Below, piece by piece: positions 17,694 through 37,287 of a DNA stretch of 64,000 nucleotides (position 1 is the first letter of the stretch; every line of letters begins with the position of its first letter). The notes below the pieces were generated by a model. That model ran no database searches. It saw only the letters and a list, made by a program, of their open reading frames with translations, and was not told the DNA's origin. A program made the position numbers and the translations under genes. The DNA comes from Subtercola boreus (GTDB lineage: Bacteria > Actinomycetota > Actinomycetes > Actinomycetales > Microbacteriaceae): assembly GCF_003399625.1 (NCBI RefSeq), contig NZ_NBXA01000007.1:124001-188000 (forward strand). The letters are read 5' to 3'.

Positions 17694-17695
17694 CG

Positions 17696-19568: not shown

Positions 19569-21029
19569 TCAGGCGGTGAAGTACTCCCACACCTCGTCGG
19601 CGTACGACTTCCACGACCGGTAGTCGTTGCCCGCGAGGTCGCGCTTCTTGCCCTCGAGTACCCGGGGGTCGGTCAGCACCGAGTGCAGGGCGGCCTCGAG
19701 CGCTTCGTCGGAGTGCGGGTCGACACCGATGACGCCGCCGTAGTGCGCCGCGATCTCGGCCATGCTGCCGAGGTCGGAAGCGATGACGGGGGTTCCCGCC
19801 CGCAGCGACTCCACGATGGGGAGCCCGAAGCCCTCGTGGAACGAGGTGAAGATCGACACCGCCGCCAGGCGATAGCTCGCTCCGAGGATGTGATCCGACG
19901 CGTTCGAGAGAACGGTCAGCGGCCAGCCCTCGTCCTGCAGGTGCTGGCTGAGCTGGTCGAAGGGCGCGCTGTTCCACGAGCCCGCACCGATCATCACGAG
20001 CTGGAACTGCTCGCCGCGGGTCCAGAGGGCGCGGGCCGCCTGCAGCACGGAGAGGTGGTTCTTGCGGGGTTCGTGGCTGCCGACCACGAGCACGACCGGC
20101 AGGTCGCTGAGTTCGAGTTCCGCTTTGACGGCGGCGAGGTCCACGTCGGAGGGGGCGGCGGAGTCGCCTCCCAGAAAGACGGTGCGAACATCCGGACCTG
20201 TGCGACCAGACGACGGGAGCATCTTCTTCCACGCGTCGAATTCGTCCGCCGTGGACTGGGAGATCGCAGCCACCCGATCGGCGTAGGCGACGGCATCGAG
20301 ATAGAGCGGGAAGTGGGCGGCCATGGCACCCGCGGCCGTCTCGCCCGAGGTGAGCGGAACGCAGTCGTAGCCGATGAAGGCCAGCTTCGAGGAGGCGAAC
20401 TCGCCGAGGGCGAGGAAACGCTCAGCGCGCTCGGAGTCGGCGGAGAGCTCGGGGACGAACACCCTGCCCCCGTTCGGAATGACGATGCGCTCACGGGCGG
20501 GCGCGAGCGACACGATCGCCTCTTCGTCGTCTCCCCTCATGCGGGCCTCCTCGCGCGGGGTGAGGCGGCGGAGGCCCTTCCGGCTCTCCGTCCACGCCAC
20601 GAGGACGACCTCGTGCTCGTGGGCCCACAGCCCCACGGTCTCCCGAACGACCCGCTGGATGCCCGACATGACGCGGGTGCTGCTCGTGTTGTGAACGTCG
20701 ATGACGATGGCGTCGGTGAGGATCTCGACCTCGGCGCTCAACCCGAAGATGCTCGAGTCGGCGCGCTCGCCGAGGCCGCGGAGTGCTTCGCCCGCGCCGT
20801 TCAGCGTGGCGTTCCGCTGGAAGACGACAAGCTCCTCCTCGGTGGGGAGTTCACCGCGGAGGGTACTCCAGACGAGCCACAGGTCGTCCCAGCGGCCGCC
20901 GGCGTCGATGGCTGCCTGGAGGGAGGCCGCGAGAGCGTCCTGCACTTCGCCAGCGCTCGCCTCGGCCGGAGCGGGGGTGCCGAGAGCCTCGAGCAGTGCG
21001 CGGAGGTTCGACGATTCGGAGAGTTTCAC
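19569..21029 (-). CDS. GT-B glycosyltransferase with N-terminal accessory domain (paralogue A)
   Basis: A 486-residue transferase. The N-terminal helical domain has DLWLVWSTLRGELP near residue 47, then DVHNTS and GIQRVVRETV near 122, VGSHEPRKNH near 319 and EGFGLPIVES near 399. These four landmarks recur in the genes at 21026, 28483 and 32972. The GTG at 21029 overlaps the upstream stop (GTGA) and is preferred over the upstream reading. It is the last gene of a seven-gene minus-strand unit that begins with gmd. It probably adds a deoxyhexose or mannose to the surface polysaccharide. Confidence 0.9.
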   Translation of the reverse strand: MKLSESSNLRALLEALGTPAPAEASAGEVQDALAASLQAAIDAGGRWDDLWLVWSTLRGELPTEEELVVFQRNATLNGAGEALRGLGERADSSIFGLSAEVEILTDAIVIDVHNTSSTRVMSGIQRVVRETVGLWAHEHEVVLVAWTESRKGLRRLTPREEARMRGDDEEAIVSLAPARERIVIPNGGRVFVPELSADSERAERFLALGEFASSKLAFIGYDCVPLTSGETAAGAMAAHFPLYLDAVAYADRVAAISQSTADEFDAWKKMLPSSGRTGPDVRTVFLGGDSAAPSDVDLAAVKAELELSDLPVVLVVGSHEPRKNHLSVLQAARALWTRGEQFQLVMIGAGSWNSAPFDQLSQHLQDEGWPLTVLSNASDHILGASYRLAAVSIFTSFHEGFGLPIVESLRAGTPVIASDLGSMAEIAAHYGGVIGVDPHSDEALEAALHSVLTDPRVLEGKKRDLAGNDYRSWKSYADEVWEYFTA

Positions 21030-22816
21030 TTCTGTGTTCCTGTCGGCTTCTGGGCTGCGCCGGCCTGTGATGCGGGGGCCGAGACGACCTTCCAGACGTC
21101 TGCCGAATACGCTTCCCACGTGCTGTCGTCCCGTGCCTCGATCTCGCCGTGCAGGCGTTCGAGCAGGGCATCGTCGGTGAGGAGCGCGCGCATGCCGTCG
21201 ACGATCGACCGGTCGTCGCGGGGGTCAGCGGTGACGCATCCACCGCCCGCTGCGATCTCCGCCGTGCTGCCGTACTCGGTGGCGAGGGCGGGTGTGCCGA
21301 CCGCCAGGGATTCGGCGATGGGCAGGCCGTAGCCCTCCTGCAGCGAGATGAAGACACTGAACCGCGCGCGGCGATAGGCGGCGGCGAGCGCGTGCTCGTC
21401 GACATCTCGGCGGAGCTCGATCTGCCTCCCCTGGTCGCGGAGCGCGGCGACCGCGTCGGGGATGTCGGTGTAGAGCCTGTCGCCCCGACCGCCGAGCAGC
21501 ACGAGCGAGAACTCCAGTCCTTCGCGCCAGAGGATCTCGCTGGCGAAGATCACGGCGAGCTGGTTCTTTCTCGGCTCGTTGCTGCCGACAGAGAGCACGA
21601 CGGGCAGCGAGGCCTCGGCGGGTGGTTCACCGTCGTCGGCCGGGATGTGCTCGATCGGCAGGTGCAGGGTTTCGACCCCGAAACCGGGCAGCCCCTGCGT
21701 GGCGAGGGCCTCACTGAAGCCGATGAACTCCGACGCGGTCGCGTTCGAGATCGCGAGGATCTCGTCGACGTACTTGATCGTCGAGAGATAGGAGACGAAG
21801 AGCCCGCTGAGCCCACGGTGCACGAGATGCCCGCTCGAGACGGGGATGGTGTCGTAGCCGATGGCGACAGTGCGGTTCGGGGAGAACCGGGTGAGCGCGG
21901 CGAGCGAGTCCGTTCCCCGGCCGACCGGCACTTCGGGGAAGAAGACCGTCGTCTGCCAGGGGACGACGAGCTCGGCGGCGGTCTCGTCGGGTTCTGCCTT
22001 CTCGTCGTCGCGGTGACGGTCGTCGTCACCCTGCCAGTCGAGCACGCGTGCCGACTCCTCGGACGACAGGGTGCGGAGGGCCGCGCCGTCATCGGTCAGG
22101 GCGGCGAGCTGGAAGCGTTCGCGGCCGGCCCAGCGCGACACGGTCTGCCGGGTCACCCGCTGGATTCCCGAGTTGAAGCCGAACTTCGCCGTCTGGTCGG
22201 TGAAGACGACCGGTTCGGTGCTGACCAGCCTGATCGTTCGGAGCTGGGCGTGGTAGCGGAGCGTCCACACGGCGCTGTGGTTCAGGATGCGCTGGGCGGC
22301 AGAGGACCCGCTCACACCGACGATGTCGCGGGCGAGCCCGAAGAGCATCTGCTGGTCGGGGAAGCATCCACTGACCGCGATGACGAGGAGCCACAGCTCG
22401 GCCTTCGAACCGGAGCCCTGCACCTGCTGCACGAGTTCGCTCAGCACGCGCTCGAGCGGCAGGGCCCGGAGCTCGGCCGCGCTCGAGTGCGGCAGGAGCG
22501 CCGGGGCGACGGCCCGCACGCGCTGCTCGAAGGCCTGCCGGCCGTGGTCGACGCCCGACTTCACGCGCGCCTGCCGGGGGAAGAGGATTCTGCGCTGCTG
22601 GCGGAGGAGGGCAACCCGTTCCCTGGCCCGCACGGCCCGGATGGGCCGCGTCACACGCCAGCTGAAACTCGCCTGCAGTTCCTGGGCCGAGGGACCGTCG
22701 AGATCGCCGGCCGCATGCAGCCCCTGGATCCAGGCGTCGACCTGTGAGGCGGCGATGAGGTGTGCTCCGCTGAGAGCGGAGGGGGAGGTGGCACTGGCCT
22801 GGTCTGTACTCGGCAT
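21026..22816 (-). CDS. GT-B glycosyltransferase with N-terminal accessory domain (paralogue B)
   Basis: A 596-residue member of the same paralogous family. An extra N-terminal segment contains LQASFSWRVTRPIRAVR, a motif seen also at the C-terminus of the FkbM protein in this window. Family landmarks follow: ELWLLVIAVSGCFP near residue 139, GIQRVTRQTV near 214, NEPRKNQ near 414 and EGYGLPIAES near 493. A 60-base gap separates it from the upstream GT-C gene. A TAGGAT sequence lies just before the ATG, so it may have its own promoter. Its C-terminus overlaps paralogue A by four bases. Confidence 0.9.
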   Translation of the reverse strand: MPSTDQASATSPSALSGAHLIAASQVDAWIQGLHAAGDLDGPSAQELQASFSWRVTRPIRAVRARERVALLRQQRRILFPRQARVKSGVDHGRQAFEQRVRAVAPALLPHSSAAELRALPLERVLSELVQQVQGSGSKAELWLLVIAVSGCFPDQQMLFGLARDIVGVSGSSAAQRILNHSAVWTLRYHAQLRTIRLVSTEPVVFTDQTAKFGFNSGIQRVTRQTVSRWAGRERFQLAALTDDGAALRTLSSEESARVLDWQGDDDRHRDDEKAEPDETAAELVVPWQTTVFFPEVPVGRGTDSLAALTRFSPNRTVAIGYDTIPVSSGHLVHRGLSGLFVSYLSTIKYVDEILAISNATASEFIGFSEALATQGLPGFGVETLHLPIEHIPADDGEPPAEASLPVVLSVGSNEPRKNQLAVIFASEILWREGLEFSLVLLGGRGDRLYTDIPDAVAALRDQGRQIELRRDVDEHALAAAYRRARFSVFISLQEGYGLPIAESLAVGTPALATEYGSTAEIAAGGGCVTADPRDDRSIVDGMRALLTDDALLERLHGEIEARDDSTWEAYSADVWKVVSAPASQAGAAQKPTGTQK

Positions 22817-22876
22817 ATCGCGCTCATCCTATTACAAGGCTCCGGCGCCAGACTGCGCGTTCCGGGAGGTCCCGGG

Positions 22877-24391
22877 TCAGAACAGCGACCACGGATAGTG
22901 CATCACGTCGAACGTGATCGGGAACGTGTAGATGGCGTACCCGGCATGCACCGCACGAGTGAAAGGCGGCAGGTCGGTGGCGACCTGCATCCGTGTGTCG
23001 TTCTCATTGTTCTCGAGCACGACCACCGTGATCTCGTCGCCCTGCAGGGCCCGTTGCTGGTAGGGCGGATACCGGTCGTTCGTCAGTCCGGCCGCCGTCA
23101 CGCGTTCCTCGGTTGCCGCGGTCAGCGAGTAGGCGACCCAGTAGTCGGCATAGACCGCGCCGAGGTTCCGGTCTTCGAGGTACTGCCCGAGCGACCGGAT
23201 GTCGCCGATGATGTAGCGGCTCTGGGTTCCGAAGGAGAGGTTCGGGAACAGGCTCTCGACCTGCACGACGGTGAGCGTCGCCGCGAGTACCATCGCGGTG
23301 ATGCCTGCCACGATCCGGTACCGGATGCGCGTCACGAGCCACGCCACGGCCACAGCCAGCGACGGCAGCACGAAGACGGTGTAGCGGTAGTCGCTCGGGC
23401 CGAGGGTCGTGCCCGCGCCGATGACCACCACGACGACGGCCAGCACCGTTCCGGCCAGCAGAGCGGCTACCCAGGCATTCCGGCCGAGCACGGCCAGTAC
23501 CGCCAGAAGGGCGAAGAGGGCGAGGCAGAGTGCGGCAGTGAGGTATCCGACGACGGTGCCCTGGGCGCTGAAGATACTCGGCATCGTGCTGGTGAACAGG
23601 GTGGCGAAGCTCCGGAGTCCCGGATGCGTGCCGTCGCTCTTCGGGGCGAGCGCATTGAGGGAGTTCGCGAACATCACCAGCCAGGGCAGGGCCCCGACGA
23701 TCGCCGCGGCGATGCCGACCAGGATGCGGTACCAGTGCCGTCTGCTTCGGACCAGGAGGATGAGCACGCCGGGTATCGCGAGCGCCGCGCCCATCGGCGA
23801 CTGCCAGAAGGCGAGGCCCGCGGCGAGCCCCACGAGCGCCCACTGCAGCAGGGGGCGGCGCACCGGCTGCCGGAGTGCCAGCGCCGTGGCGCCGAGCCCG
23901 AGCACCAGGCTCGGGCCGTAGAAGCCCGGTTCGCTGATCGAGATGCGCAGGGTGTAGAAACCTGAGAACCAGTACAGGATCGCGGCGACATTGCCCACGA
24001 GCGGGCCGAACGCCTTCGTGGCGATGAACCGCAGCACCAGCACGCCGCCGACGAAGAAGAGCATCGCGACCACGGAGAGCACTTCGATGTGCGCGCCGAC
24101 AATGGCCATCACGCCGCCCGCGACGAGTTGCAGCAGCGTGCCGCCGTAGGTCTGGCCCCAGAAGAAGAAGGTCAGGTCCCCGTCGGAGATGTCCTTCGCC
24201 ATCAGGGAGACGATGGCGTTGTCGGAGTCGACGTAGAAGGCGGGGGTGAAGACGAGAAGGAGGCGCAGCAGCAATCCGGCCGCCAGGAGCACCCAGAAGG
24301 CGATACCTGCGATCCGGAGGCCACGCTCGGCCACAGAGGATGCATTCCCCGTGGTGTCAGTCTCCGTCGATTCGGCCAGTCGGTCGCTCAT
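22877..24391 (-). CDS. GT-C-type membrane glycosyltransferase (GT39/ArnT-like)
   Basis: A 504-residue polytopic protein with about 11-12 helices. The first external loop reads FYVDSDNAIVSLMAKDI, with the paired acidic residues that mark the active site in ArnT/PMT-like GT-C enzymes, and is followed by FWGQTYGGTLLQL. The C-terminal 120 residues are extracytoplasmic. The ATG overlaps the stop of the upstream GT2 gene's neighbour as ATGA. It probably takes a sugar from a polyprenyl-phosphate carrier and attaches it to the glycan outside the membrane. Confidence 0.82.
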   Translation of the reverse strand: MSDRLAESTETDTTGNASSVAERGLRIAGIAFWVLLAAGLLLRLLLVFTPAFYVDSDNAIVSLMAKDISDGDLTFFFWGQTYGGTLLQLVAGGVMAIVGAHIEVLSVVAMLFFVGGVLVLRFIATKAFGPLVGNVAAILYWFSGFYTLRISISEPGFYGPSLVLGLGATALALRQPVRRPLLQWALVGLAAGLAFWQSPMGAALAIPGVLILLVRSRRHWYRILVGIAAAIVGALPWLVMFANSLNALAPKSDGTHPGLRSFATLFTSTMPSIFSAQGTVVGYLTAALCLALFALLAVLAVLGRNAWVAALLAGTVLAVVVVVIGAGTTLGPSDYRYTVFVLPSLAVAVAWLVTRIRYRIVAGITAMVLAATLTVVQVESLFPNLSFGTQSRYIIGDIRSLGQYLEDRNLGAVYADYWVAYSLTAATEERVTAAGLTNDRYPPYQQRALQGDEITVVVLENNENDTRMQVATDLPPFTRAVHAGYAIYTFPITFDVMHYPWSLF

Positions 24392-25284
24392 CCTCGTATC
24401 CTTCCGGCAGCCGCGCGGGCACCGAGACCCGCCCGGAGCGCCACCCGGAGGGGTAACTGGTACCAGCGGTGGTACCGCTTCGCGAGATAGAGGTACGCGC
24501 TGTGGTGGTGCGCGCTCAGCATGGCAGCCGAGACCCGTTTCGTGCTGGTGCCCCCGGTGTGCTGGACGGTGGCGGTGGGAGCATAGAGCACCCGGCGCCC
24601 CGCGTTGCCGAGCCGCTCACCGAGGTCGACGTCTTCGAAGTACATGAAGAAGCGGTCGTCGAACCCGCCCACCTGTTCGAAGGCGTCACGCCGCACCAGC
24701 ATGCAGGAGCCCGAGAGCCAGCCGGACTCGATCGGCTCTGTGCCGCTCGTCTTCGATTTGTCGGCGCGGAGGTACCGCTTCGACCAGGGGTTCTGGGGCC
24801 AGACCCGGTGGAACACCGCGTGGCCGGCGCCCGAGGTGAGCGAGGGTACGTCGCGGGCCGACGGGTAGATGCTGCCGTCGTCGTTCGTCACCCGGGGCCC
24901 GACGGCGCCGATCCTGTCATCGGCCCGGATCACGGCGAGCATCTCGTCGATGCTGCCCGGTTCGAAGACCACGTCGGGATTGGTGACGAGGATGAATCGT
25001 GCGTCGGTTCCCAGGCTCCGGGCGGCGAAGTTGACCGCGCCGCCGTAGCCCAGGTTCCTTCCCGGTGAGAGGATCCGCGCGCCGGAGGAAGCGGTCGCCG
25101 CCGTGAGATCGTCGCCCGGAGCGTTGTTCACCACGATCAGGTCGAGAGGCTCCGAGCTCGCGGAGGAGGTCGAGGCGAGGCAGGTGAGCACGTCGTCTCC
25201 CGAGAAGTAGCTCACGGTCACGAGGGCCACGAGAGCCGCGAGCGAGCCGGAAGGGGCGGCGGAGGGGCGATCCGATGTGTTCAC
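24388..25284 (-). CDS. GT2 family glycosyltransferase (rhamnosyltransferase-like)
   Basis: A 298-residue GT-A transferase. It shows VTVSYFSGDDVL at the N-terminus, VVNNAPGDD, PGRNLGYGGAVNFA, VTNPDVVF as the metal motif, GWLSGSCMLVRRDAF and GFDDRFFMYFEDVDLGERL. The last two are strong marks of the WbbL-like rhamnosyltransferase group. The GTG at 25284 overlaps the upstream stop (GTGA) and is chosen over a longer reading. Use of dTDP-L-rhamnose from the rfb genes is plausible. Co-transcribed with the gmd pair, so a GDP-sugar donor is also possible. Confidence 0.9.
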   Translation of the reverse strand: MNTSDRPSAAPSGSLAALVALVTVSYFSGDDVLTCLASTSSASSEPLDLIVVNNAPGDDLTAATASSGARILSPGRNLGYGGAVNFAARSLGTDARFILVTNPDVVFEPGSIDEMLAVIRADDRIGAVGPRVTNDDGSIYPSARDVPSLTSGAGHAVFHRVWPQNPWSKRYLRADKSKTSGTEPIESGWLSGSCMLVRRDAFEQVGGFDDRFFMYFEDVDLGERLGNAGRRVLYAPTATVQHTGGTSTKRVSAAMLSAHHHSAYLYLAKRYHRWYQLPLRVALRAGLGARAAAGRIRG

Positions 25285-26450
25285 GGGGCCACCGCCAACC
25301 GGTATGCCTCGACATGCCGAGAGGCGCACGCCGCCCAGGTGAATGCTGCAGCGCGAGCTGCTCCCGCGAGCGCCAGACGGGCGCGTTCCGCCGGGTCGGC
25401 GAGCAGGTCCCGGATGCCGCGGCCGATGCTCGCGGAGTCGACGTCTGTGTACTTCACGGCGTCACCGCCCACTTCGGGCAGGGAGAGACGGCGGGTGGTG
25501 AGCACGGCCGATCCGCTCGCCATCGCCTCGAGCACGGGCAGGCCGAACCCTTCGCCGAGGCTCGGGTAGGCCGTCAGGAGGGAGCCGCCGAGCAGGGCCC
25601 GGAGCTGTTCGAGGGGCAGGTAACCGAGCATCCGCACGTCGACTCCGGCTGCGACAGCATCCGAGACGGCGGCAGGAACGGAGTCGTCCCAGCCGCTGCC
25701 GCCCGCGAGCAGGAGTGCGGGGCGGGAGGAGGCCGGCGTGTCACGCACTGCCGCCGTGAACCCCTGCACCAGGGCCCGAACGTTCTTCCGGGGTTCGAGG
25801 GTGCCGAGGAAGGCGACCCAGCCGGCGGCGACCGGTGGAACGAGGCTCGCCTCGAAGGCCTGCCGTTCGGCGGCGGCCGGGGGGTGGAAGATCGTGCTGT
25901 CATAGCCGAGCGGCGCATCGACCACGCTCCGGGGCGAGGCATGGGTGACGCGCAGGTACTCGTCGGCTGTGGCGCGGCTCGGGGTGACGACGGTGGCGCC
26001 CGACAGGCGTGCCGCCCTGATCCAGCTACGGAAGAAGATCCGCTTGACGCGGCCGTGCACCTCCGGAGCTGTGAAGAAGGTGAGGTCGTGCACCGTCACC
26101 ACTCGCTTCCGCCTCGTGAACAGGGGGAAGGTGTAGTGAGGGGAGTGGATGATCATCGCCCCCGCCCGGCGCGCGAGCCCCGGCAGCACCAGTTGCTCCC
26201 AGACGAGGCGGCCGGATGCCCGCGCACCCCAGCCCGCGATCTCCATCACCCGCGTGACCCCTGCGGCCTCGAAGGCCGACCTGTCCCGCGGCTGGCAGAC
26301 GACAGCCAGGGGCACGCCCGCGCGCACCAGTTCGCCCACCACGTTCTCGACGTAACGGCCGACGCCCCCGCGATCGGCGGGGATGGCGGTGGCATCGAAG
26401 AGCACACGCAAGGAGGCGGCGCCCGGCGCGGAGGTCGTCACCGGGGTCAC
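25281..26450 (-). CDS. Glycosyltransferase family 4 protein
   Basis: A 389-residue GT-B enzyme. The N-terminal acceptor domain has DRGGVGRYVENVV; the centre has VTVHDLTFF and VTPSRATADE; the donor domain has LGTLEPRKN and GEGFGLPVLEAMASG. The GTG at 26450 overlaps the upstream dehydratase-like gene (GTGA) and is in frame; the much longer upstream reading is out-of-context sequence antisense to the neighbour. It resembles mannosyl- and rhamnosyltransferases of the same class. Immediate linkage to two GDP-mannose dehydratase genes suggests a GDP-6-deoxyhexose or GDP-mannose donor. Confidence 0.9.
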   Translation of the reverse strand: MTPVTTSAPGAASLRVLFDATAIPADRGGVGRYVENVVGELVRAGVPLAVVCQPRDRSAFEAAGVTRVMEIAGWGARASGRLVWEQLVLPGLARRAGAMIIHSPHYTFPLFTRRKRVVTVHDLTFFTAPEVHGRVKRIFFRSWIRAARLSGATVVTPSRATADEYLRVTHASPRSVVDAPLGYDSTIFHPPAAAERQAFEASLVPPVAAGWVAFLGTLEPRKNVRALVQGFTAAVRDTPASSRPALLLAGGSGWDDSVPAAVSDAVAAGVDVRMLGYLPLEQLRALLGGSLLTAYPSLGEGFGLPVLEAMASGSAVLTTRRLSLPEVGGDAVKYTDVDSASIGRGIRDLLADPAERARLALAGAARAAAFTWAACASRHVEAYRLAVAP

Positions 26451-27415
26451 GCGTCGAGGAGCTCGAGGTCGTGCTCGACCATCCGCGCCACCAGGGTCTC
26501 GAAGTCGACCGACGGCGACCAGCCGAGGACGTCCCGGGCGCGGCTCGCGTCCCCCAGCTGCTCGGCGGGGTCGACGGGGCGAACGAACGCCGGGTTCACG
26601 CTGACGAGCGACGACCAGTCGTCGATGCCGACCCGGGCGAACGCGGCATCCAGGAAATCGGAGATGGTGTGCGAGACGCCGGTGGCGACGATGAAGTCGC
26701 CCGCCTCGGGTGCCCGGGCGGCGAGTCGCATGGCCTCGACGTAGTCGGGTGCCCAGCCCCAGTCGCGCCGGGCGTCGAGGTTGCCGAGTTCGAGGCCCGC
26801 CTGCAGGCCCCGGCTGATGCGTGCCACGCTCGCCGTGATCTTTCGTGTGACGAAGGCCTCGGGGCGCCGGGGCGACTCGTGGTTGTAGAGGATCGTGTTC
26901 GACGCATGCAGTCCCCGCCCGCGGAACACCCCCACCGAGAGGTGCGCGTAGGCCTTCGAGGCCCCGTAGGGAGAGGATGGCCGGATCGCGGTCGTCTCCC
27001 GTTGCGGTGTCTCGGCGACCTGCCCGAAGATCTCGGCACTCGATGCGTGCAGCACCCGCACCGGATGCCCGTGCTCCTCCTGCAGGCGGTGGGCGGCGTC
27101 GAGCAACCGCACGACGACCTGCCCGTTGATCGCACCGGTCATCACGGGGTCGTTCCACGACGCGGCCACCGAGGAGACCGCGGCGAGCGAGTAGAGCTCG
27201 TCGGGCCTCACGTCACGAAGGAGGGACTCCAGGGCATCCGGGGCCAGCAGGTCGACGGCGTGCAGCGTCAGCTTCGCGGGGGAGCCGAGCGCGGCGAGGT
27301 TCTCCTCTGTGCTGTTCCTGACGACGCCGTGGACCTCATACCCGTCGGCGAGCAGGGACTCGGCGAGGTAGGAGCCGTCCTGCCCTGAGATTCCGGTGAC
27401 GAGTGCGACGGGCAC
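26447..27415 (-). CDS. GDP-mannose 4,6-dehydratase family protein, second copy
   Basis: A 322-residue extended SDR with nearly every GMD signature: TGISGQDGSYLAE, SSAEIFGQV, SPYGASKAYAH with the catalytic Tyr/Lys, NHESPRRPEAFVTRK and LGNLDARRDWGWAPDYVEAM. It lies six bases downstream of the clear gmd gene. A GDP-4-keto-6-deoxymannose reductase (rmd) would be expected here, and this copy may have taken that role, but the sequence reads as a dehydratase. Its GTG/TGA overlap couples it to the GT4 gene. The product would be GDP-4-keto-6-deoxymannose or GDP-D-rhamnose. Confidence 0.85.
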   Translation of the reverse strand: MPVALVTGISGQDGSYLAESLLADGYEVHGVVRNSTEENLAALGSPAKLTLHAVDLLAPDALESLLRDVRPDELYSLAAVSSVAASWNDPVMTGAINGQVVVRLLDAAHRLQEEHGHPVRVLHASSAEIFGQVAETPQRETTAIRPSSPYGASKAYAHLSVGVFRGRGLHASNTILYNHESPRRPEAFVTRKITASVARISRGLQAGLELGNLDARRDWGWAPDYVEAMRLAARAPEAGDFIVATGVSHTISDFLDAAFARVGIDDWSSLVSVNPAFVRPVDPAEQLGDASRARDVLGWSPSVDFETLVARMVEHDLELLDA

Positions 27416-27421
27416 TTCGGC

Positions 27422-28408
<987 letters not shown>

Positions 28409-28448
28409 GTTTCCTCGTTGTTCGTTCGGGGGGCGTCTCGGACAGCTC

Positions 28449-28479
28449 ATAGTAGCGTCGCCGAGTCATCGACTAGTAT
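28449..28479. promoter_or_regulatory. Divergent promoter region, gmd (minus) and glycosyltransferase (plus)
   Basis: ATAGTA at 28449-28454 reads TACTAT on minus, about 40 bases before the gmd start, giving a leader with GAGGAA. TAGTAT at 28474-28479 on plus is followed by TCCATGGTG. The position six bases after the box is a GTG, the second codon of the annotated plus-strand gene. No clear -35 boxes. Confidence 0.5.
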
Positions 28480-28482
28480 TCC

Positions 28483-30411
28483 ATGGTGCACCCAGACCCC
28501 GAGGCAGGCAGGCCGCCCTCCGGCGGCAGATCGGTGCCTGTGGGCACCCAGACCGCGGCTGTGGATGCCCGGCTGCGGCAGATCGCACCGCACCTCGGCC
28601 TCTCCTCCGGCCCGGCCGATCCTCTGGCGGGCTGGACCCACCCGGCCGGCGAACTGGCCGCGGCGGTGGCCCGGGCCGTACGTATCTCTCTGAACGATGC
28701 CGATGTCTGGCTGGCGATCGTGGGGTTCACCGCGACCTTCCCGACGCTCGACGAGCACGCATCTGTGCGCCGGGCGCTGGCGCTGGCAGACCCCGGCGAC
28801 GCCTTCGGGGTGCTCACCGCCCTGCTCGATGCGCTGGCACCGATCATCCGCCGCACCCTCCTGCCGGAGGCCGAGATCGAGATCGTCACCGACACGGTGA
28901 TCGTCGATGCGAACTTCAGCGGGCGGAGCGATCACAACACCGGCGTGCAGCGGGTACTGCGGGAGACCGTCTCCCGGTGGTACCCCCGGCGCGAGCTGAC
29001 TCTCGCCTGCTGGAACGAGCGCGGAACCGGGATGCGGCACCTCGTCGGCCACGAGATCGACCGTGTTCTCGACTGGGCCACCCACTCGAGCCTCTCCGCG
29101 GGGGAGCGGGCCGCCCTGCACGCCGCATCGGAGGCGTCGGCCGAGCACCGGGCCGCGCGCAGTGTCATCCTGGTTCCGCTGGGCTCGGTGATCGTCGAGA
29201 TCGAGGTCTCCCAGCTCGAGACCGCCGCGCCGCTCGCGGCTCTCGCGGCCGTCTCGGGCAACAGGGTCGCGGTCGTCGGGCACGACGCGATCCCGATCGT
29301 GAGCGCCCAGAGCCAGCCCACGGGGGAGATCGAGCGCTTCGCCCGGTTCCTCACGGTGGTGAAGCACTCGAGTCGGGTGGCGGGCGTGAGCGCATCGGCG
29401 GCCACCGAGTACAGCGGCTTCGTCGATGCGGTTCGCGCGCAGGGTGTCGAGGGGCCGAGCGTCGTCGCCGTGCCGCTGGCGATGAACCCGCCCACCGCTG
29501 CCGCGCGGGCGGTGGCGCTCGAGCCTGCCGACGGCTCCGCGGCAGATCCCACCGAGCTGCCGCTGGTGCTCGTCGTCGGCAGCCAGGAGCCGCGCAAGAA
29601 CCACAGTCCCATCGTGTTCGCGGCCGGGAGGCTGTGGGCCGAGGGCATCCGTTTCCGCATCCGGTTCATCGGTGGAGGCAGCGGGCCGGGCATCGCCAAG
29701 CTCGACCGTGAGGTTCGGGCGGTCGGTCAGCTCGGTCTCGGCGTCGAGGTGCTGAGGGATGCGAGCGATACTGTGCTGCTCGACTCCTACCGGGAGGCCC
29801 GCTTCACCGTGTTCCCCTCCCTCCACGAGGGGTTCGGTCTGCCCGTGGCCGAGTCCCTCGCCCTCGGCGTGCCGGTGATCACCTCGAACCACGGCAGCCT
29901 CGCGGAGATGGCGGAGGGCGGCGGCTGCCTCACGGTCGACCCCCGCGACGACGAGGCGATCGAGAATGCGATGAGGACGCTGCTCGTCGAGCAGGAGCTC
30001 TACGAGCGGTTGCGGCAGCAGGCGGTGTCGCGCACCTTCCGCACCTGGAACGAGTATGCCGCCGAGCTCTGGCGGCTCCTGGTCGAGCCGGTGCAGCAGC
30101 AGCTCACTGCCGCTGCGGCGGCTCTGGATGATGCAGTCGCTCTGGATGCGGGCGCCACCGCCTGGCAGCCAGAGACCGCCAACACCTCCGAGGCCTCACC
30201 GGCCGCGCTGCAGCTCGCCCTCGCGGGCTGGTTCCACGCGGTGCGGGCCGAACTCGCCGCCGAGAAGGCCCGGCAGAACTCCCCGGCTGCCAAGGTGCGG
30301 AAGGTGGGCGCGCTCGCGAAGTTCTTCGTGGCCCGCTCCCGCGAGATGGGTGTCGCACCCGCCACGCGCGCCGCGGTGAAGATCGTCAGGCGCCGTCTCA
30401 TTCGAGGCTGA
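28483..30411 (+). CDS. GT-B glycosyltransferase with N-terminal accessory domain (paralogue C)
   Basis: A 642-residue member of the four-gene family. Landmarks are DVWLAIVGFTATFP near residue 74, GVQRVLRETV near 154, VGSQEPRKNH near 365 and EGFGLPVAES near 449. A unique C-terminal extension of about 110 helical, Ala-rich and basic residues (KVRKVGALAKFF) may contact the membrane. The start could be ATG 28483 or the next codon, GTG 28486, which sits at the leaderless position behind TAGTAT. It diverges from gmd and precedes the DUF4012 gene. Donor unknown. Confidence 0.9.
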   Translation: MVHPDPEAGRPPSGGRSVPVGTQTAAVDARLRQIAPHLGLSSGPADPLAGWTHPAGELAAAVARAVRISLNDADVWLAIVGFTATFPTLDEHASVRRALALADPGDAFGVLTALLDALAPIIRRTLLPEAEIEIVTDTVIVDANFSGRSDHNTGVQRVLRETVSRWYPRRELTLACWNERGTGMRHLVGHEIDRVLDWATHSSLSAGERAALHAASEASAEHRAARSVILVPLGSVIVEIEVSQLETAAPLAALAAVSGNRVAVVGHDAIPIVSAQSQPTGEIERFARFLTVVKHSSRVAGVSASAATEYSGFVDAVRAQGVEGPSVVAVPLAMNPPTAAARAVALEPADGSAADPTELPLVLVVGSQEPRKNHSPIVFAAGRLWAEGIRFRIRFIGGGSGPGIAKLDREVRAVGQLGLGVEVLRDASDTVLLDSYREARFTVFPSLHEGFGLPVAESLALGVPVITSNHGSLAEMAEGGGCLTVDPRDDEAIENAMRTLLVEQELYERLRQQAVSRTFRTWNEYAAELWRLLVEPVQQQLTAAAAALDDAVALDAGATAWQPETANTSEASPAALQLALAGWFHAVRAELAAEKARQNSPAAKVRKVGALAKFFVARSREMGVAPATRAAVKIVRRRLIRG

Positions 30412-30507
30412 TTCCCCGGTTCGGCTTGCTACAGTGGGGCATTCGCGGGGGGAGCCGGTGCACTGCGCCCGAATCCACGCCCGCTGTGACCCCGCCAGCC
30501 GAGCACC

Positions 30508-30521
30508 AGGAGTGACCCATC
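30508..30521 (+). promoter_or_regulatory. Ribosome binding site in front of a probable ATC start codon
   Basis: AGGAG at 30508-30512 is followed by six bases and ATC at 30519. The reading frame is closed by TGA at 30513-30515, so no ATG, GTG or TTG precedes the coding frame until GTG 30600. This site decides the start of the DUF4012 gene. Confidence 0.55.
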
Positions 30522-32372
30522 ACCGCATCTCTCGCGCCCTCCGCGCCGGGTGAGCGCCGTTCCCGGCGTCGCCGGAAGTGGTCGACCCGCCGCCGTGTCG
30601 TGGCCGTCGTGCTCATCGTCCTGATCAGCCTCATCGTGGCGCTCGCCTGCATCGGCGGCTGGGTCGCCTACCAGGCCGTGCAGGCGAAGGACTCCCTCGA
30701 GCGGGCCCAGGGCACGGTCTCGACGCTACAGACGCAACTGACCTCCGTCGACGTGACGAAGCTGGATGTCTCGGCGCTGACCGCTTCGGCCGACTCCTTC
30801 GCCTCCGACGTGAGCGAGGCGCGCCAGCACACCAACGACCCGATGTTCAAGCTGGCCGAGAAGGTGCCGATGGTCGGGCCGAACCTCACTGCCGTGCGCC
30901 AGCTCACCGACTCGCTCGACCAGCTCAGCACCGACGCGCTGCTGCCGATCGTCGATTTCGGCAAGACCCTGACCCCCGCAGCGCTGAAGCCCGTCAACGG
31001 GGCGTTCAATGTCGAGCTGCTGAGAAACGGCGACACCGCCCTCGCCAATGCCGACACGGCGATCACCGCCGCCAGCGCGAGCCTTGCCTCCATCGACACG
31101 ACCGACACCGTCGGCCAGATCGGTTCGGCCAAGACCACCCTCACCTCCGCGCTCGGCAAGGCGCAGGATCAGATCGTGAAGGCTCGCGGCACGCTGTCGA
31201 CGGCTGAGGGCATCCTCGGCATGAACGGACCCCGGCACTATGTGCTGGCGTTTTTGAACAATGCCGAGTCGACCGGCCTCGGCGGTGGCCCCGCTTCGCT
31301 CTCCATGCTCACGGTCGACAACGGGGCGTTCGCGATCACCGACCAGGCCTCGAGCCGTGACTTCCCGCAGACCGACGGTCCGGTCATCCCGGTCGACGCC
31401 GGCCTCCGGGGAATCTACGGCCAGGGCATCAACGAGACGCTCAACTGGTCGACCAGCCGGCCGGACTTCCCGACCGCGGGCAACCTGATCAAGTCGTGGT
31501 GGGAGAAGTACCGGGGCGGAACCGTCGACGGCGTCGTCTCCATCGACCCGATCGCCCTCTCCGACATGCTCGCCGTGACGGGCCCGGTGAAACTGCAGTC
31601 CGGTGAGGAGATCAACGCGGACAATGCTGTCTCGCTCCTGTTGCACGACATCTACCTGCGTTTCGAACCCTCGGAGATCCAGTCGGGCACCGACGCCTTC
31701 TTCAAGGAGGCCGCGACGACCATCTTCAGCGGCATCACGTCGACCTCCGCCGCACCCGATGCGCTGATCACCGGGGTCAACAAGGCCATCGATGCCGGCG
31801 ACCTGATGGCGTGGAGCGCGAACGCCGACGAGCAGAAGCTGCTCACGGGCACGAAGATCTCGGGCGTGATGCCCACGGACAACGCGAAGTCCACGCTGAC
31901 CGGCACGTTCTTCCGGGACGTGACGGTGTCGAAGACCGACTACTGGCTCGAGACAGCCGTGAACCTGCAGACCGATGTGTGCACCAACCCGAACAACCCC
32001 ACGTTCACCCAGACGGTCACGCTGCACTCGACGATCACCAAGCAGGAGGCCTCGACGATCGCTCCCTTCATCGTCGGCGACAACTTCGGCGGGCGGAAGT
32101 TCAGCACCGAGGTCTACGGCTACGGACCCGTCGGGGCCGCCATCACCGACACCCAGGTGGGCGACTCGAGCGTGGGTGGTTCCGCGAGATCCTCCTCCGA
32201 GGATCTCGGCCGACCGGTCGGGCGTGCCATCGTCGACCTGGCCCCGGGGGAGACGAACACGGTCACCTTCACCTACGCCGGCGCGGCAGGCTCCTATGGT
32301 GCACCTGCCCTCCAGACCACGCCCATGATCAACGCCACCGCGGCCACGATCGACGCGGCCGGTTGCAAGTAG
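30519..32372 (+). CDS. DUF4012 domain membrane-anchored protein
   Basis: A 617-residue protein of the actinobacterial DUF4012 family, common in surface-polysaccharide loci; function unproven. A basic N-terminus (ERRSRRRRKW), one membrane helix at about residues 28-55, a helical region to about 210, then an extracytoplasmic domain with FLNNAESTGLGGG and GVVSIDPIALSDML, typical of the family. The conventional start GTG 30600 would remove the basic flank and has no ribosome site. ATC at 30519 lies six bases after AGGAG and restores both, so it is used here. Followed by gtrA-like and glycosyltransferase genes in one unit. Confidence 0.85.
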   Translation: MTASLAPSAPGERRSRRRRKWSTRRRVVAVVLIVLISLIVALACIGGWVAYQAVQAKDSLERAQGTVSTLQTQLTSVDVTKLDVSALTASADSFASDVSEARQHTNDPMFKLAEKVPMVGPNLTAVRQLTDSLDQLSTDALLPIVDFGKTLTPAALKPVNGAFNVELLRNGDTALANADTAITAASASLASIDTTDTVGQIGSAKTTLTSALGKAQDQIVKARGTLSTAEGILGMNGPRHYVLAFLNNAESTGLGGGPASLSMLTVDNGAFAITDQASSRDFPQTDGPVIPVDAGLRGIYGQGINETLNWSTSRPDFPTAGNLIKSWWEKYRGGTVDGVVSIDPIALSDMLAVTGPVKLQSGEEINADNAVSLLLHDIYLRFEPSEIQSGTDAFFKEAATTIFSGITSTSAAPDALITGVNKAIDAGDLMAWSANADEQKLLTGTKISGVMPTDNAKSTLTGTFFRDVTVSKTDYWLETAVNLQTDVCTNPNNPTFTQTVTLHSTITKQEASTIAPFIVGDNFGGRKFSTEVYGYGPVGAAITDTQVGDSSVGGSARSSSEDLGRPVGRAIVDLAPGETNTVTFTYAGAAGSYGAPALQTTPMINATAATIDAAGCK

Positions 32373-32381
32373 GATGTGCGA

Positions 32382-32975
32382 GTGACTGAGCCCACTACGA
32401 CCCAGACGGCTCCCCGGGGCAGGATCGCCCGCCTGGCCCATGCCTTCTGGGACAAACTGCTGCGCTACGCGCTGAAGTTCGGCGTCGTGGGCGGCATCGG
32501 CTTCGTCGTCGACTTCGCCATCTTCAACTGGTTGCGGGTCGGCGGTCTGGGCGCTGAGCACTTCCTCTCCGGCCCCATCGGCGCCAAAGTCGCGGCCGTC
32601 GCTGTGGCGACCATCGTCACCTGGTTCGGCAACCGCTACTGGACGTTCCGGGAGCACCGCCGCAAGAACTACGTGCGCGAACTGCTGGAGTTCGCCGTCG
32701 TGGCGGTCTCGGGCCTGCTGATCAACCTGCTCTGCCTGTGGGTCTCGCACTATGTGCTCGGCTTCACCTCGCTGCTCGCCGACAACATCTCGGGCAACTT
32801 CATCGGTACCGCTCTCGCGACGCTGTTCCGGTTCATGCTCTACCGCTACTGGGTGTTCGGGCACCACCGCTCCGGCACCGTCGTGGGCGCTGAGGAGCAG
32901 GCCCAGGCGGGAGCCTCGGCCCTCTTCGAGAGCGACGAGCTCGCAGCGGCCGACGCCCGCTCGAAGAAGCCGTGA
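32382..32975 (+). CDS. GtrA family membrane protein
   Basis: A 197-residue protein with four membrane helices: FGVVGGIGFVVDFAIFN, AVAVATIVTWFGNRYWTF, AVVAVSGLLINLLCLW and NFIGTALATLFRFMLYRYWVF. The NRYWTF and RYWVF motifs define the GtrA family, which is thought to help flip polyprenyl-phosphate sugars across the membrane. GTG 32382 is preferred over GTG 32376 because AGGA lies seven bases upstream. Its stop overlaps the next GTG (GTGA). Likely partner of the GtrB-like GT2 enzymes and a GT-C protein elsewhere in the locus. Confidence 0.92.
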   Translation: MTEPTTTQTAPRGRIARLAHAFWDKLLRYALKFGVVGGIGFVVDFAIFNWLRVGGLGAEHFLSGPIGAKVAAVAVATIVTWFGNRYWTFREHRRKNYVRELLEFAVVAVSGLLINLLCLWVSHYVLGFTSLLADNISGNFIGTALATLFRFMLYRYWVFGHHRSGTVVGAEEQAQAGASALFESDELAAADARSKKP

Positions 32976-34417
32976 GCACCGCCGCCCTCCTCGGTCGCCT
33001 CGATGCGCTCGCCGAAGCGATCGGCGCCACCGTGGCGGTCACAGGGGTCCCTGCCTACCTCGACGCGGTCTCCGAGGTCGTCGGTACCGATACCGAACTG
33101 CTCTGGCTGGCGCACACGGCGATCAGCGGGGAGTTCCCCGAGTCGCCCACCTTCGAGGACTTCCGCCGGGCTGCACGCCTCACGGGCACGCGCCAGGCCC
33201 TGGATGCCGTGGTGACCCGTGCCGGCCGGAGGCTGGCACCCCACCGCGGCATCGCCATCCGGATCGTGCAGCACGCGGTCGTCGTCGATGTGCACCACAC
33301 CGCCCGGACGGGCCTCGCCACGGGCATCCAACGGGTGGTGCGCCAGACGATCGTGGAGTGGTCGAAGCAGCGCGAGATCGAGCTGGTGGGCTGGGATGCC
33401 CGCTACCTGGGCCTTCGCGCACTCACCGCCCCCGAGCGGCAGAACGCGCTGTACGGATCGGTTCCCGACATCCCGAAGTCCCGGGAGCGGGTGCTGACGA
33501 TCCCGTTCCGGTGCACCTACATCCTTCCGGAGCTCGCGATCGAAGACGACCGCACCTCCCGCCTGTCGTGCTTCGCCGAGTTCTCGGGCAACACCACCAA
33601 CGTCATCGGATTCGACTGCGTGCCGCTCACCTCGTCGGAGACGGTCGGCGGCGGAATGTCGGCCGCCTTCGCGAAGAATCTCGCGGCCATCGCGCACTTC
33701 GACCGCATCTCCACCATCTCGCGCGCTGCGGCGACGGAATACGGGGGCTGGCGGCGGATGCTCGCCGGGGCCGGACTCCGGGGGCCCGAGATCGAGCCCC
33801 TGCTGCTGCCGAGCGTCGCCGAGGAGGTCTCCCCGGCCGACTTCGAGCGCGCCCGCGCCGAGCTCTTCCGGGGCGACGCCCCCCTCGTGGTGTGCGTCGG
33901 CAGCCACGAACCGCGGAAGAACCACCTCGCCGTTCTCGCCGCCGCCGAGCGGCTCTGGCGGGACGGTGTGCGCTTCCAGCTGGTCTTCATCGGAGGCAAC
34001 GGGTGGCACGGGGTGGAGTTCAAGGCCGTGCTGGCCCGGCTCGCCGCAGCCGGCCGGCCCGTCAGGGCGATCTCCGCCATCTCGGATCCGCTCCTCTGGA
34101 GCGCCTACCGGCTGGCGCGGGTGACCGTGTTCCCGTCGCTGAACGAAGGCTTCGGGCTGCCCGTCGGGGAGTCTCTCTCGGCAGGCACCCCGGTGGTCAC
34201 GAGCGACTACGGAAGCATGAAGGAGATCGCCTCGGGCGGCGGCGCCATCTTCGTCGACCCCCGCGACGATGACGACGTCTGGCGCGGAATCAGGGCCGGA
34301 CTCCTCGACGACGAGCTGCACGCACGCCTGGTCGCCGAGACGACGCACCTCTCCGGCCGCGGCTGGTCGGACTATGCCGACGAGCTCTGGGACTTCTTCG
34401 TACACACACCGGCCTGA
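32972..34417 (+). CDS. GT-B glycosyltransferase with N-terminal accessory domain (paralogue D)
   Basis: A 481-residue transferase, the most compact of the four paralogues. LLWLAHTAISGEFP near residue 43 marks the accessory domain; VVVDVHHTART and GIQRVVRQTI (near 119) link to the GT core; VGSHEPRKNH (near 309) and EGFGLPVGES (near 393) mark the donor site. The GTG overlaps the gtrA-like stop. The ABC exporter pair follows after a 94-base gap with its own promoter-like box. It probably builds the exported polysaccharide backbone. Confidence 0.9.
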   Translation: MSTAALLGRLDALAEAIGATVAVTGVPAYLDAVSEVVGTDTELLWLAHTAISGEFPESPTFEDFRRAARLTGTRQALDAVVTRAGRRLAPHRGIAIRIVQHAVVVDVHHTARTGLATGIQRVVRQTIVEWSKQREIELVGWDARYLGLRALTAPERQNALYGSVPDIPKSRERVLTIPFRCTYILPELAIEDDRTSRLSCFAEFSGNTTNVIGFDCVPLTSSETVGGGMSAAFAKNLAAIAHFDRISTISRAAATEYGGWRRMLAGAGLRGPEIEPLLLPSVAEEVSPADFERARAELFRGDAPLVVCVGSHEPRKNHLAVLAAAERLWRDGVRFQLVFIGGNGWHGVEFKAVLARLAAAGRPVRAISAISDPLLWSAYRLARVTVFPSLNEGFGLPVGESLSAGTPVVTSDYGSMKEIASGGGAIFVDPRDDDDVWRGIRAGLLDDELHARLVAETTHLSGRGWSDYADELWDFFVHTPA

Positions 34418-34459: not shown

Positions 34460-34507
34460 TAGTATTTACCGGTGGGATGCGCCTGACATCCTGCGGTACT
34501 CGAGGAG
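34460..34507 (+). promoter_or_regulatory. Promoter-like box and ribosome site before the ABC exporter genes
   Basis: TAGTAT (34460-34465) lies 46 bases upstream of the permease ATG. GAGGAG at 34502-34507, four bases before the ATG at 34512, is a strong ribosome site that decides this start against longer readings. The same TAGTAT box occurs before the gene at 28483 and before secA. A CCGGCC/GGCCGG inverted repeat precedes it at about 34419-34438. Confidence 0.5.
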
Positions 34508-34511
34508 ATGT

Positions 34512-35456
34512 ATGGCAACCCAAGCCGAAGCGAGGGCTCTGCGGCTGTCTGAGCTGCCCTTCGAAACGTCGGTCAACGCCGGCCCCAAGTACGTCGGCGG
34601 GTTCTTCACGGCCATCAGGGAGATCGCCTCCCACCGGGAGCTGCTCGATCTCCTCATCCGGCGCGAGTTGAAGTCGCGGTACAAGGACTCCTCGCTCGGC
34701 TTCCTCTGGAGCCTGATCAAGCCGCTCGTGCAGCTGCTCATCTACTACGTGTTCATCGGCCAGGTGCTGGGCGCCGCCAAGGGCGTCGCCGACTTCGCCA
34801 TCTTCGTCTTCGCGGGCCTCACTCTCTGGGGTCTCTACAGCGAGACCATCGCCACCGGCACGGCATCGATCGTCTCGAACGGCGGACTGATCAAGAAGGT
34901 CTACCTGCCGCGGGAGATCTTCCCCCTGGCCGCCACCGGGTCTGCCATCTTCAACTTCCTGGTGCAGATGGTGGTGCTGCTCGCGGCGATCGTGCTGCTC
35001 GGGCAGTTCCCGATCTCGCTCAACCTCCTCTACGTGCCTGCTGCCTTCGTGATCGTGCTCATCTGGGGCGTGGCGTTCGCCGTGCTGCTGTCGGCGCTGA
35101 ACGTGTACCTCCGCGACATCCAGTACCTGGTCGAGGTGGTGATGCTGTTGCTCTTCTGGGCCTCGCCGATCGTCTACTCGTGGGGCTTCGTCGTCGCCGC
35201 AGTCAAGAACCACACCTGGTTGCTCGAGGTGTACCTGCTGAATCCGATCTCCCTGAGCATCCTCGCGTTCCAGCGCGGGCTCTGGCAGGCCGGCAGCCAG
35301 ACGCGGGTGCTCGAAGGCAGAGAGGTTCCCCCGCAGGACTGGCCCGCCTACATGGACCTCCGTCTCGCCGCCGCCGCCGTCGTGGGCCTCATCGTTCTGT
35401 TCATCGCCCAGCGCATCTTCTCCCGCCTGCAGGGCAACTTCGCCCAGGAGATCTGA
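34512..35456 (+). CDS. ABC-2 type polysaccharide export permease (Wzm/TagG-like)
   Basis: A 314-residue inner-membrane permease. An N-terminal cytoplasmic segment ends in RRELKSRYKDSSLGFLWSL, the signature of polysaccharide and teichoic-acid ABC-2 exporters, followed by six helices with LPREIFPLAA and LNVYLRDIQYL. It pairs with the ATPase gene, whose ATG shares one base with its stop (TGATG). Together they would export an undecaprenyl-linked glycan built by the nearby transferases. The start is fixed by the GAGGAG site at 34502. Confidence 0.95.
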   Translation: MATQAEARALRLSELPFETSVNAGPKYVGGFFTAIREIASHRELLDLLIRRELKSRYKDSSLGFLWSLIKPLVQLLIYYVFIGQVLGAAKGVADFAIFVFAGLTLWGLYSETIATGTASIVSNGGLIKKVYLPREIFPLAATGSAIFNFLVQMVVLLAAIVLLGQFPISLNLLYVPAAFVIVLIWGVAFAVLLSALNVYLRDIQYLVEVVMLLLFWASPIVYSWGFVVAAVKNHTWLLEVYLLNPISLSILAFQRGLWQAGSQTRVLEGREVPPQDWPAYMDLRLAAAAVVGLIVLFIAQRIFSRLQGNFAQEI

Positions 35457-37219: not shown

Positions 37220-37287
37220 GGGAGTCCTTTCCGACGGCGGGCAACACTGAACGCCGCCATCCGACCCTAGCGGTTTGCGCCTCGGTG

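What the first reader, a model, noticed from the sequence alone, without database searches (positions are those of the whole stretch)
19569..34417. Four paralogous glycosyltransferases with an extra N-terminal domain in one locus
Genes at 19569, 21026, 28483 and 32972 share the order: WL motif with following GxFP/GELP (DLWLVWSTLRGELP, ELWLLVIAVSGCFP, DVWLAIVGFTATFP, LLWLAHTAISGEFP), a GIQRVxRxT link, an EPRKN motif and EGFGLP or EGYGLP. The GT-B core is ordinary, but the shared N-terminal helical domain and GIQRV link are not part of the standard GT4 fold. The four copies span both strands and probably build different linkages of one polymer. The N-terminal domain may be an undescribed acceptor- or partner-binding module.
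Basis: partly seen in the sequence, partly recalled or inferred. Interest (0 to 1): 0.7.

Follow-up and report, generated by a model that had tools for sequence, protein, structure and literature searches.

The report
Paired sugar transferases with helical module
Four enzymes that string sugars together in an actinobacterium are two ordered pairs of one family, each carrying a small five-helix part that the domain libraries searched here do not name and that probably helps the paired enzymes assemble at the membrane; this matters because it offers a testable way in which such polymer-building machines are put together.

Summary
The four paralogues are real. A module profile built without rows named Subtercola finds all four N-termini at 50-59 bits; the best of 200 shuffled controls scores 10. 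The extra part is the ~100 residues before it: five helices, pLDDT 96, with no credible Pfam, NCBIfam, PHROGs or PDB sequence match. Fold search gives only a non-significant phycobilisome lead; DUF4214 failed.

New: the four are two ordered pairs. "First" and "second" enzymes split anciently. Pairs often lie with GDP-mannose-dehydratase-like genes and a Wzm/Wzt exporter. In 39 of 54 loci a SWR(V/I)TxPLR element lies just before a first enzyme's core, often on a FkbM methyltransferase. In four genomes a second enzyme has lost its catalytic motifs but keeps the module.

Best reading: the module is an assembly element of a membrane-bound two-transferase polymerase resembling WbdA/WbdD or WsaE/WsaF. 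Docking is inferred, not shown.

The parts
19569..21029 (-). GT-A: second-type module-bearing GT4 (486 aa); overlaps the stop of GT-B by 4 bases
20736..21029 (-). N-terminal five-helix module of GT-A (about residues 1-98)
20649..20663 (-). GIQRV of GT-A (residues 123-127): start of a helix of the GT-B N lobe, not a separate link
21026..22816 (-). GT-B: first-type module-bearing GT4 (596 aa) with an N-terminal extension
22625..22747 (-). SWRVTRPIR element in the N-terminal extension of GT-B (profile match residues 24-64)
22211..22534 (-). Five-helix module of GT-B (residues 95-202)
28483..30411 (+). GT-C: first-type module-bearing GT4 (642 aa)
28558..28902 (+). Five-helix module of GT-C (residues 26-140)
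30211..30405 (+). C-terminal tail of GT-C (residues 577-641) matching the SWR-element profile; weak here (15 bits), stronger in one orthologue (25 bits)
32972..34417 (+). GT-D: second-type module-bearing GT4 (481 aa)
32972..33283 (+). Five-helix module of GT-D (about residues 1-104); residues 1-102 modelled alone at pLDDT 96.3
26447..27415 (-). GDP-mannose-dehydratase-like SDR; called Rmd in my scripts, but closer to Gmd than to known RMD
27422..28450 (-). GDP-mannose 4,6-dehydratase (Gmd)
34491..35456 (+). ABC polysaccharide exporter permease (Wzm-like); start not settled
35456..36223 (+). ABC exporter ATPase (Wzt-like, 255 aa with the start I chose, no extra C-terminal domain found)
36272..37258 (-). 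FkbM methyltransferase with a ~95-residue spacer before SWRVTKPLR (residues 311-319) near its end
25281..26444 (-). Plain GT4 without the module, used as comparator

Best explanation
The four genes encode two first+second pairs of retaining GT4 glycosyltransferases that build a cytoplasmic polysaccharide exported by the neighbouring Wzm/Wzt-type ABC transporter, probably from a GDP-6-deoxyhexose. The ~100-residue N-terminal module is a compact five-helix domain that is a regular part of this actinobacterial GT4 family. Most likely it is an assembly element: it helps each enzyme take its place in a membrane-bound two-transferase polymerase, next to a SWR(V/I)TxPLR element that is carried by a FkbM methyltransferase, a small separate ORF, or the first transferase itself. 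The arrangement resembles the WbdA/WbdD or WsaE/WsaF polymerase-terminator systems. Shown by computation: family, predicted fold, pairing, ancient first/second split, gene neighbourhood, SWR element, retention of the module in copies without catalytic motifs. Inferred: physical docking, membrane anchoring, methyl capping, sugar identity.
For: Module present in 179 of 179 family ORFs (partly circular, since the profile came from members) and found by the out-of-genus profile. Five helices at pLDDT 96.3; full chain pLDDT 92, pTM 0.91. First/second split: 57 of 58 seconds and 0 of 56 firsts lie on one side of a branch with SH-aLRT 99. The module alone picks a relative of the same position in 111 of 112 cases (after one relabelling). 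Even copy number in 30 of 36 module-bearing genomes of the family sample. Of 54 loci: Gmd-like 41, second SDR 39, Wzm 38, Wzt 37. SWR element before a family GT core on the same strand in 39 of 54 loci, in 6 loci inside the GT itself; methyltransferase + SWR in 21 ORFs of 19 loci, with an 82-124 residue spacer in the 18 whose methyltransferase part aligns to its end. Four genomes carry a second copy without GIQRV, EPRKN or EX7E that keeps the module, 27-35% identical to each other; in the shortest, no missing C lobe was found in another frame. WbdD recruits WbdA through its C-terminal region (PMC3482155, passages).
Against: No interaction was modelled or measured. Each module follows its own GT-B core more closely (partial correlations 0.27 and 0.34) than the partner's module (0.13, 9 of 500 permutations as high; 0.17, 0 of 500, when Wzm is also controlled for); the first module follows Wzm as well (0.26) while the second does not (-0.17) (35 loci). 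So the module may simply be part of each enzyme's own fold. pTM 0.91 suggests, without proving it, that it packs on its own core. 13 of 54 loci show no SWR motif, and 3 methyltransferase ORFs lack it. Wzt lacks the carbohydrate-binding domain of the capped systems. The second SDR is nearer to Gmd than to RMD, so D-rhamnose is unproven.
Confidence: 0.45

Rival explanations
1. The module is an intramolecular extension of the GT-B N lobe that stabilises the fold or shapes the active-site entrance, with no partner of its own.
For: It is present in all 179 family ORFs (partly circular), its divergence follows its own GT core best, and the full-chain model has pTM 0.91.
Against: It is kept in four second copies whose donor-binding lobe has decayed, one of them with most of that lobe missing; the stretch 92-97 that links it to the core is below pLDDT 50.
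Confidence: 0.3
2. The module binds the acceptor (growing glycan or its polyprenyl-diphosphate carrier), as the first reader suggested as one option.
For: In sequence it precedes the acceptor-side lobe of the GT-B fold, and first and second enzymes have distinct modules.
Against: Copies without catalytic motifs keep the module; the nearly invariant residues W, L, P and R look like core residues rather than a binding surface (inference, no surface computed); no carbohydrate-binding fold was among the 34 fold matches.
Confidence: 0.12
3. The module is a divergent DUF4214 / phycobilisome-linker-like domain.
For: Chains of phycobilisome entries (three of them named as linker domains) take the first three Foldseek ranks and 9 of 34 hits, with probabilities 0.12-0.85 against at most 0.10 for the other hits; an own-genome DUF4214 protein matches PF00427 at E 8.8e-4, below its cut-off.
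Against: Best Foldseek E-value is only 0.5; neither PF13946 nor PF00427 is among the 25 of 28 families shown for the 132 members; profile-profile probability with DUF4214 was 0.1% (score 9.2), and at least 8 of 60 column-shuffled controls scored higher, up to 12.9.
Confidence: 0.13

Closest known systems
E. coli O9a / Klebsiella O3 WbdA-WbdD polymerase-terminator system (PMC11231755: outline with abstract, discussion part 1 of 2, passages; PMC3482155: passages)
   Same: Cytoplasmic assembly, Wzm/Wzt export, more than one GT module per polymer, a methyltransferase protein in the locus whose tail may lie at the membrane and near the polymerase (the last point inferred here).
   Different: Here the two GTs are separate proteins with an extra helical module; the methyltransferase is FkbM-type and no kinase domain was matched; the spacer is about 82-124 residues; Wzt has no extra C-terminal domain; the host is an actinobacterium.
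Geobacillus stearothermophilus WsaE/WsaF S-layer rhamnan system (PMC2943079, PMC3898925: passages)
   Same: Gram-positive, ABC-dependent glycan, two polymerising GT proteins, methyltransferase-linked termination.
   Different: WsaE fuses the methyltransferase to two GT domains and uses dTDP-L-rhamnose; here the GTs are separate, carry the module, and the locus has GDP-mannose-dehydratase-like genes. WsaF has a proline in place of the first Glu of EX7E; the window enzymes keep it.
GT4 proteins with GIQRVVR of up to about 1,400 aa in L063-L082 (nearly all Proteobacteria; L064 is a Tissierellia)
   Same: Related GT core and GIQRV loop.
   Different: No convincing module match (two of these ORFs at E 5 or more; one other ORF in L075 at 0.13).
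DUF4214 (PF13946) and phycobilisome linker (PF00427)
   Same: Short helical domain with a G..P....L-like turn (resemblance recalled, then tested).
   Different: Profile comparison with DUF4214 negative; PF00427 itself was not compared profile to profile.

Membership tests
GT4 glycosyltransferase | Glycos_transf_1 C-terminal domain | tested here: met
   4 of 4 above the Pfam cut-off
GT4 glycosyltransferase | EX7E motif | tested here: met
   EGFGLPIVE, EGYGLPIAE, EGFGLPVAE, EGFGLPVGE in the alignment
GT4 glycosyltransferase | GT-B fold | tested here: met
   Model of GT-A, pTM 0.91; the 50 PDB matches shown are led by GT-B enzymes, best E 2.9e-13; only GT-A was modelled in full
GT4 glycosyltransferase | Pfam N-lobe model (Glyco_transf_4) | tested here: not met
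   0 of 4, while the plain GT4 at 25281-26444 has it; the fold is nevertheless GT-B
DUF4214 (PF13946) | Sequence or profile similarity | tested here: not met
   Not among the families shown for 132 members; hhalign probability 0.1%, shuffled controls as high or higher
Phycobilisome linker fold | Significant fold match | tested here: inconclusive
   Ranks 1-3 in Foldseek, but best E 0.5 and TMq 0.42
ABC-dependent polymerase-terminator system | Wzm/Wzt exporter beside the GTs | tested here: met
   Window; Wzm 38 and Wzt 37 of 54 loci, some cut by contig ends
ABC-dependent polymerase-terminator system | Terminating enzyme linked to a coiled-coil ruler | tested here: inconclusive
   FkbM methyltransferase with conserved tail; coiled coil not computed, termination not testable here
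ABC-dependent polymerase-terminator system (capped type) | Carbohydrate-binding module on Wzt | tested here: not met
   255 aa; ABC and AAA matches only
GDP-D-rhamnose pathway | Gmd | tested here: met
   399 bits to NCBIfam gmd, cut-off 415, so just under it
GDP-D-rhamnose pathway | RMD reductase | tested here: inconclusive
   26447-27415 scores 272 bits with a Gmd structure against 114 bits with RMD 2pk3

The most novel reading that the evidence does not exclude
The five-helix module is a previously undescribed assembly domain that builds a heteromeric two-glycosyltransferase polymerase on a SWR-element membrane scaffold, and some actinobacteria use a catalytically dead glycosyltransferase as the second, purely structural or regulatory subunit.
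Probability: 0.3. Interest if true: 0.65.

Novelty: new variant of a known kind. Interest (0 to 1): 0.5.

Why it matters
How separate glycosyltransferases are held together to make a regular polymer is, to my knowledge, worked out for few systems, mostly Gram-negative. This family gives an ordered, ancient enzyme pair, a shared module, a recurrent SWR element found in several gene contexts, and natural copies in which catalytic motifs are lost but the module is kept: a ready-made set for testing assembly apart from catalysis in actinobacterial wall or surface glycans.

Tried and rejected
DUF4214 homology: suggested by a motif that I recalled; not supported by profile-profile comparison. The DUF4214 alignment used 21 of the 31 stretches extracted; the others were near-copies or held stops. 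Phycobilisome linker: kept only as a lead. Six weak module hits in the phylum sample: five read as alpha/beta hydrolases and one as another enzyme by my reading of the open frames, without a family search; treated as chance. FkbM-GT fusion: suspected from the table, not borne out (0 of 155). My first count of FkbM-type SWR carriers (21 loci) included short tails; recounted with the methyltransferase part alone as 21 ORFs in 19 loci, in two of which (L013, L014) the gene lies on the opposite strand; 3 further methyltransferase ORFs have no SWR match. The label Rmd in my scripts is not established. L020_8316_9989 was labelled second by my rule; as the third of four copies in a row I relabelled it first after seeing the tree (used). 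Module-partner covariation was weak. A frame check for the shortened copy in L206 found no C lobe in another frame. Rows dropped: the module alignment A3 holds a window row and 131 of 135 non-redundant rows; the full-length alignment A4 holds 74 rows, the first 12 and then every second one. Literature: no paper in the library holds both DUF4214 and glycosyltransferase; the listings showed none that I recognised as describing this GT family. I saw only their top rows, and subscription journals are mostly not held, so absence from print is not shown.

Full report
Observation. The four genes and their motifs are in the sequence. I name them GT-A (19569-21029, -), GT-B (21026-22816, -), GT-C (28483-30411, +) and GT-D (32972-34417, +). 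GT-A most likely starts at 21029, its GTG overlapping the TGA of GT-B. Pfam matches only the C-terminal part of each. The own genome has these four module carriers and no other at E<=1 (150 of 185 candidates scored); its other matches to GT-A score 60 bits or less against 217 or more for the family.

GIQRV is ordinary. It aligns with GGVGRY of the plain GT4 at 25281-26444. In the model of GT-A (pLDDT 92.0, pTM 0.91) it begins helix 123-138, after strand 108-111 and a short loop helix, as in a GT-B N lobe. G-I/V-QR is found in 21 of 28 lower-scoring relatives from L063-L082, which are nearly all proteobacterial and show no convincing module.

The extra domain. About 100 residues before the first strands form a compact five-helix module (GT-D residues 1-102: pLDDT 96.3, pTM 0.89). 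A profile from 93 of 132 rows, leaving out the genus, finds all four at 50-59 bits; the best of 200 shuffled controls reached 10.1. First-type and second-type modules are homologous (hhalign probability 98.7%). In Pfam, NCBIfam and PHROGs no family is matched by more than two of 132 members, and PDB sequences give nothing below E 0.37. Foldseek puts chains of phycobilisome entries at ranks 1-3 and in 9 of 34 hits, but the best E is 0.5. DUF4214, which I suspected from a recalled motif, failed: probability 0.1%, score 9.2, and shuffled profiles scored up to 12.9.

Distribution. From the loci then held I took 179 ORFs at 370 bits or more, 155 distinct after trimming; the next best ORF has 203 bits. 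All 12 genomes of the genus searched, the own one included, have a match, but one (G010, 88% complete) has only low-scoring matches of at most 87 bits. In the family sample 36 of 299 genomes carry modules, 30 of them in even number (at most 16 candidates per genome scored). In a phylum sample of 396 genomes, with 12 candidates per genome scored, only the own genome and G393 have strong hits; six weak hits I read as chance.

Pairs. In 54 loci (L009-L062, three contigs appearing twice) the genes mostly come as ordered neighbours. A tree of 126 GT cores, module left out, puts 57 of 58 second-position genes and 0 of 56 first-position genes on one side of a branch with SH-aLRT 99. The one exception is the third of four copies in a row, so probably the first of a second pair; I relabelled it after seeing the tree. 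GT-A and GT-D fall on the second side, GT-B and GT-C on the other. So the window holds two pairs: GT-B/GT-A, and GT-C/GT-D with DUF4012 and GtrA genes between. By module alone, the nearest relative in another locus has the same position in 111 of 112 cases; by GT core in 112 of 112.

Neighbourhood. With best-hit assignment and thresholds of my choosing, 41 of 54 loci have a Gmd-like gene, 39 a second SDR, 38 a Wzm and 37 a Wzt; several loci are cut by contig ends. The second SDR, which my scripts call Rmd, is closer to Gmd structures (272 bits) than to RMD 2pk3 (114 bits), so the sugar may be D-rhamnose or another 6-deoxyhexose. Rhamnan is reported in walls of some Curtobacterium, also Microbacteriaceae (PMC9862828, passages, citing others).

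SWR element. A motif SW(R/K)xTxPxR was found in 41 of 54 loci; in 39 it lies 384-859 bases, mostly 430-560, before the GIQRV of a family GT on the same strand. In 6 loci it is inside that GT's own N-terminal extension, as in GT-B. It sits near the end of a FkbM methyltransferase in 21 ORFs of 19 loci, in two of them on the opposite strand as in the window; the spacer is 82-124 residues in the 18 whose methyltransferase part aligns to its end, and 3 further methyltransferase ORFs have no SWR match. Elsewhere it is on a small separate ORF. By a weaker profile match it is at the C-terminus of GT-C (15 bits; 25 bits in one orthologue). In the window the FkbM protein has SWRVTKPLR near its end. That this is a membrane-binding helix or coiled coil is inference; neither was computed.

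Second copies without catalytic motifs. Five lack all three, two of them being the same gene, so four genes in four genomes (L058, L060 = L196, L197, L206). Each follows an intact first-type GT, keeps the module, and is 27-35% identical to the others; L206 has lost most of the C lobe, which is not in another frame. Each of these genomes also holds a pair whose motifs are intact. The other five ORFs fail one or two patterns: L057 is cut by a contig end, L011 looks like a degenerate first-type copy, and L029, L032 and L061 were not looked into.

Interpretation. In WbdD systems a coiled-coil protein with a terminating enzyme recruits the polymerase near the membrane (PMC11231755, outline, discussion part 1 of 2 and passages; PMC3482155, passages). 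In Gram-positive Geobacillus, WsaE joins a methyltransferase to two GT domains and works with WsaF (PMC2943079, PMC3898925, passages). The present loci look like another arrangement: separate paired GTs, each with the module, beside a methyltransferase or SWR element and a short Wzt. Keeping the module where catalytic motifs are lost favours assembly over acceptor binding. Against this, each module follows its own GT core (partial r 0.27 and 0.34) more than the partner's module (0.13, 9 of 500 permutations as high; 0.17 with Wzm controlled), and the first module follows Wzm about as closely (0.26) while the second does not (-0.17) (35 loci). A purely intramolecular role stays possible. No interaction was modelled or measured.

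Verdict. A real, conserved, unnamed domain in an otherwise known kind of system: new variant of a known kind, interest 0.5.

Noticed in passing
L058:1506-3080, L060:10561-12399 (same as L196), L197:2309-3715, L206:2074-3669: Second-position copies that keep the module but lack GIQRV, EPRKN and EX7E; L206 lacks most of the C lobe.
   Followed up: partly
L011:1947-3845: A first-type copy in Subtercola lobariae that fails the EPRKN and EX7E patterns and has a degenerate GIQRV region.
   Followed up: no
window 36272-37258 (-): FkbM methyltransferase with SWRVTKPLR near its end, on the opposite strand downstream of Wzt; in 17 of the 19 loci with methyltransferase + SWR the gene is on the strand of the GTs instead.
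   Followed up: partly
L128, L143 (own genome, contigs C14 and C6): Proteins with tandem DUF4214 units; the one in L143 also matches the phycobilisome linker family PF00427 at E 8.8e-4, below its cut-off.
   Followed up: partly
window 17666-19552 (+) and 22877-24391 (-): Two large ORFs that look like membrane proteins by eye, with no Pfam match at 0.001 or NCBIfam match at 1e-10; relatives occur in some of the loci.
   Followed up: no
window 14964-17693 (+): Long ORF whose translation shows about three repeats of roughly 150 residues with a GxGNGxxNxAxY-like motif; seen by eye only.
   Followed up: no
G010: The one same-genus genome sampled without a strong module-bearing GT (88% complete); the locus may be lost or missing from the assembly.
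   Followed up: no
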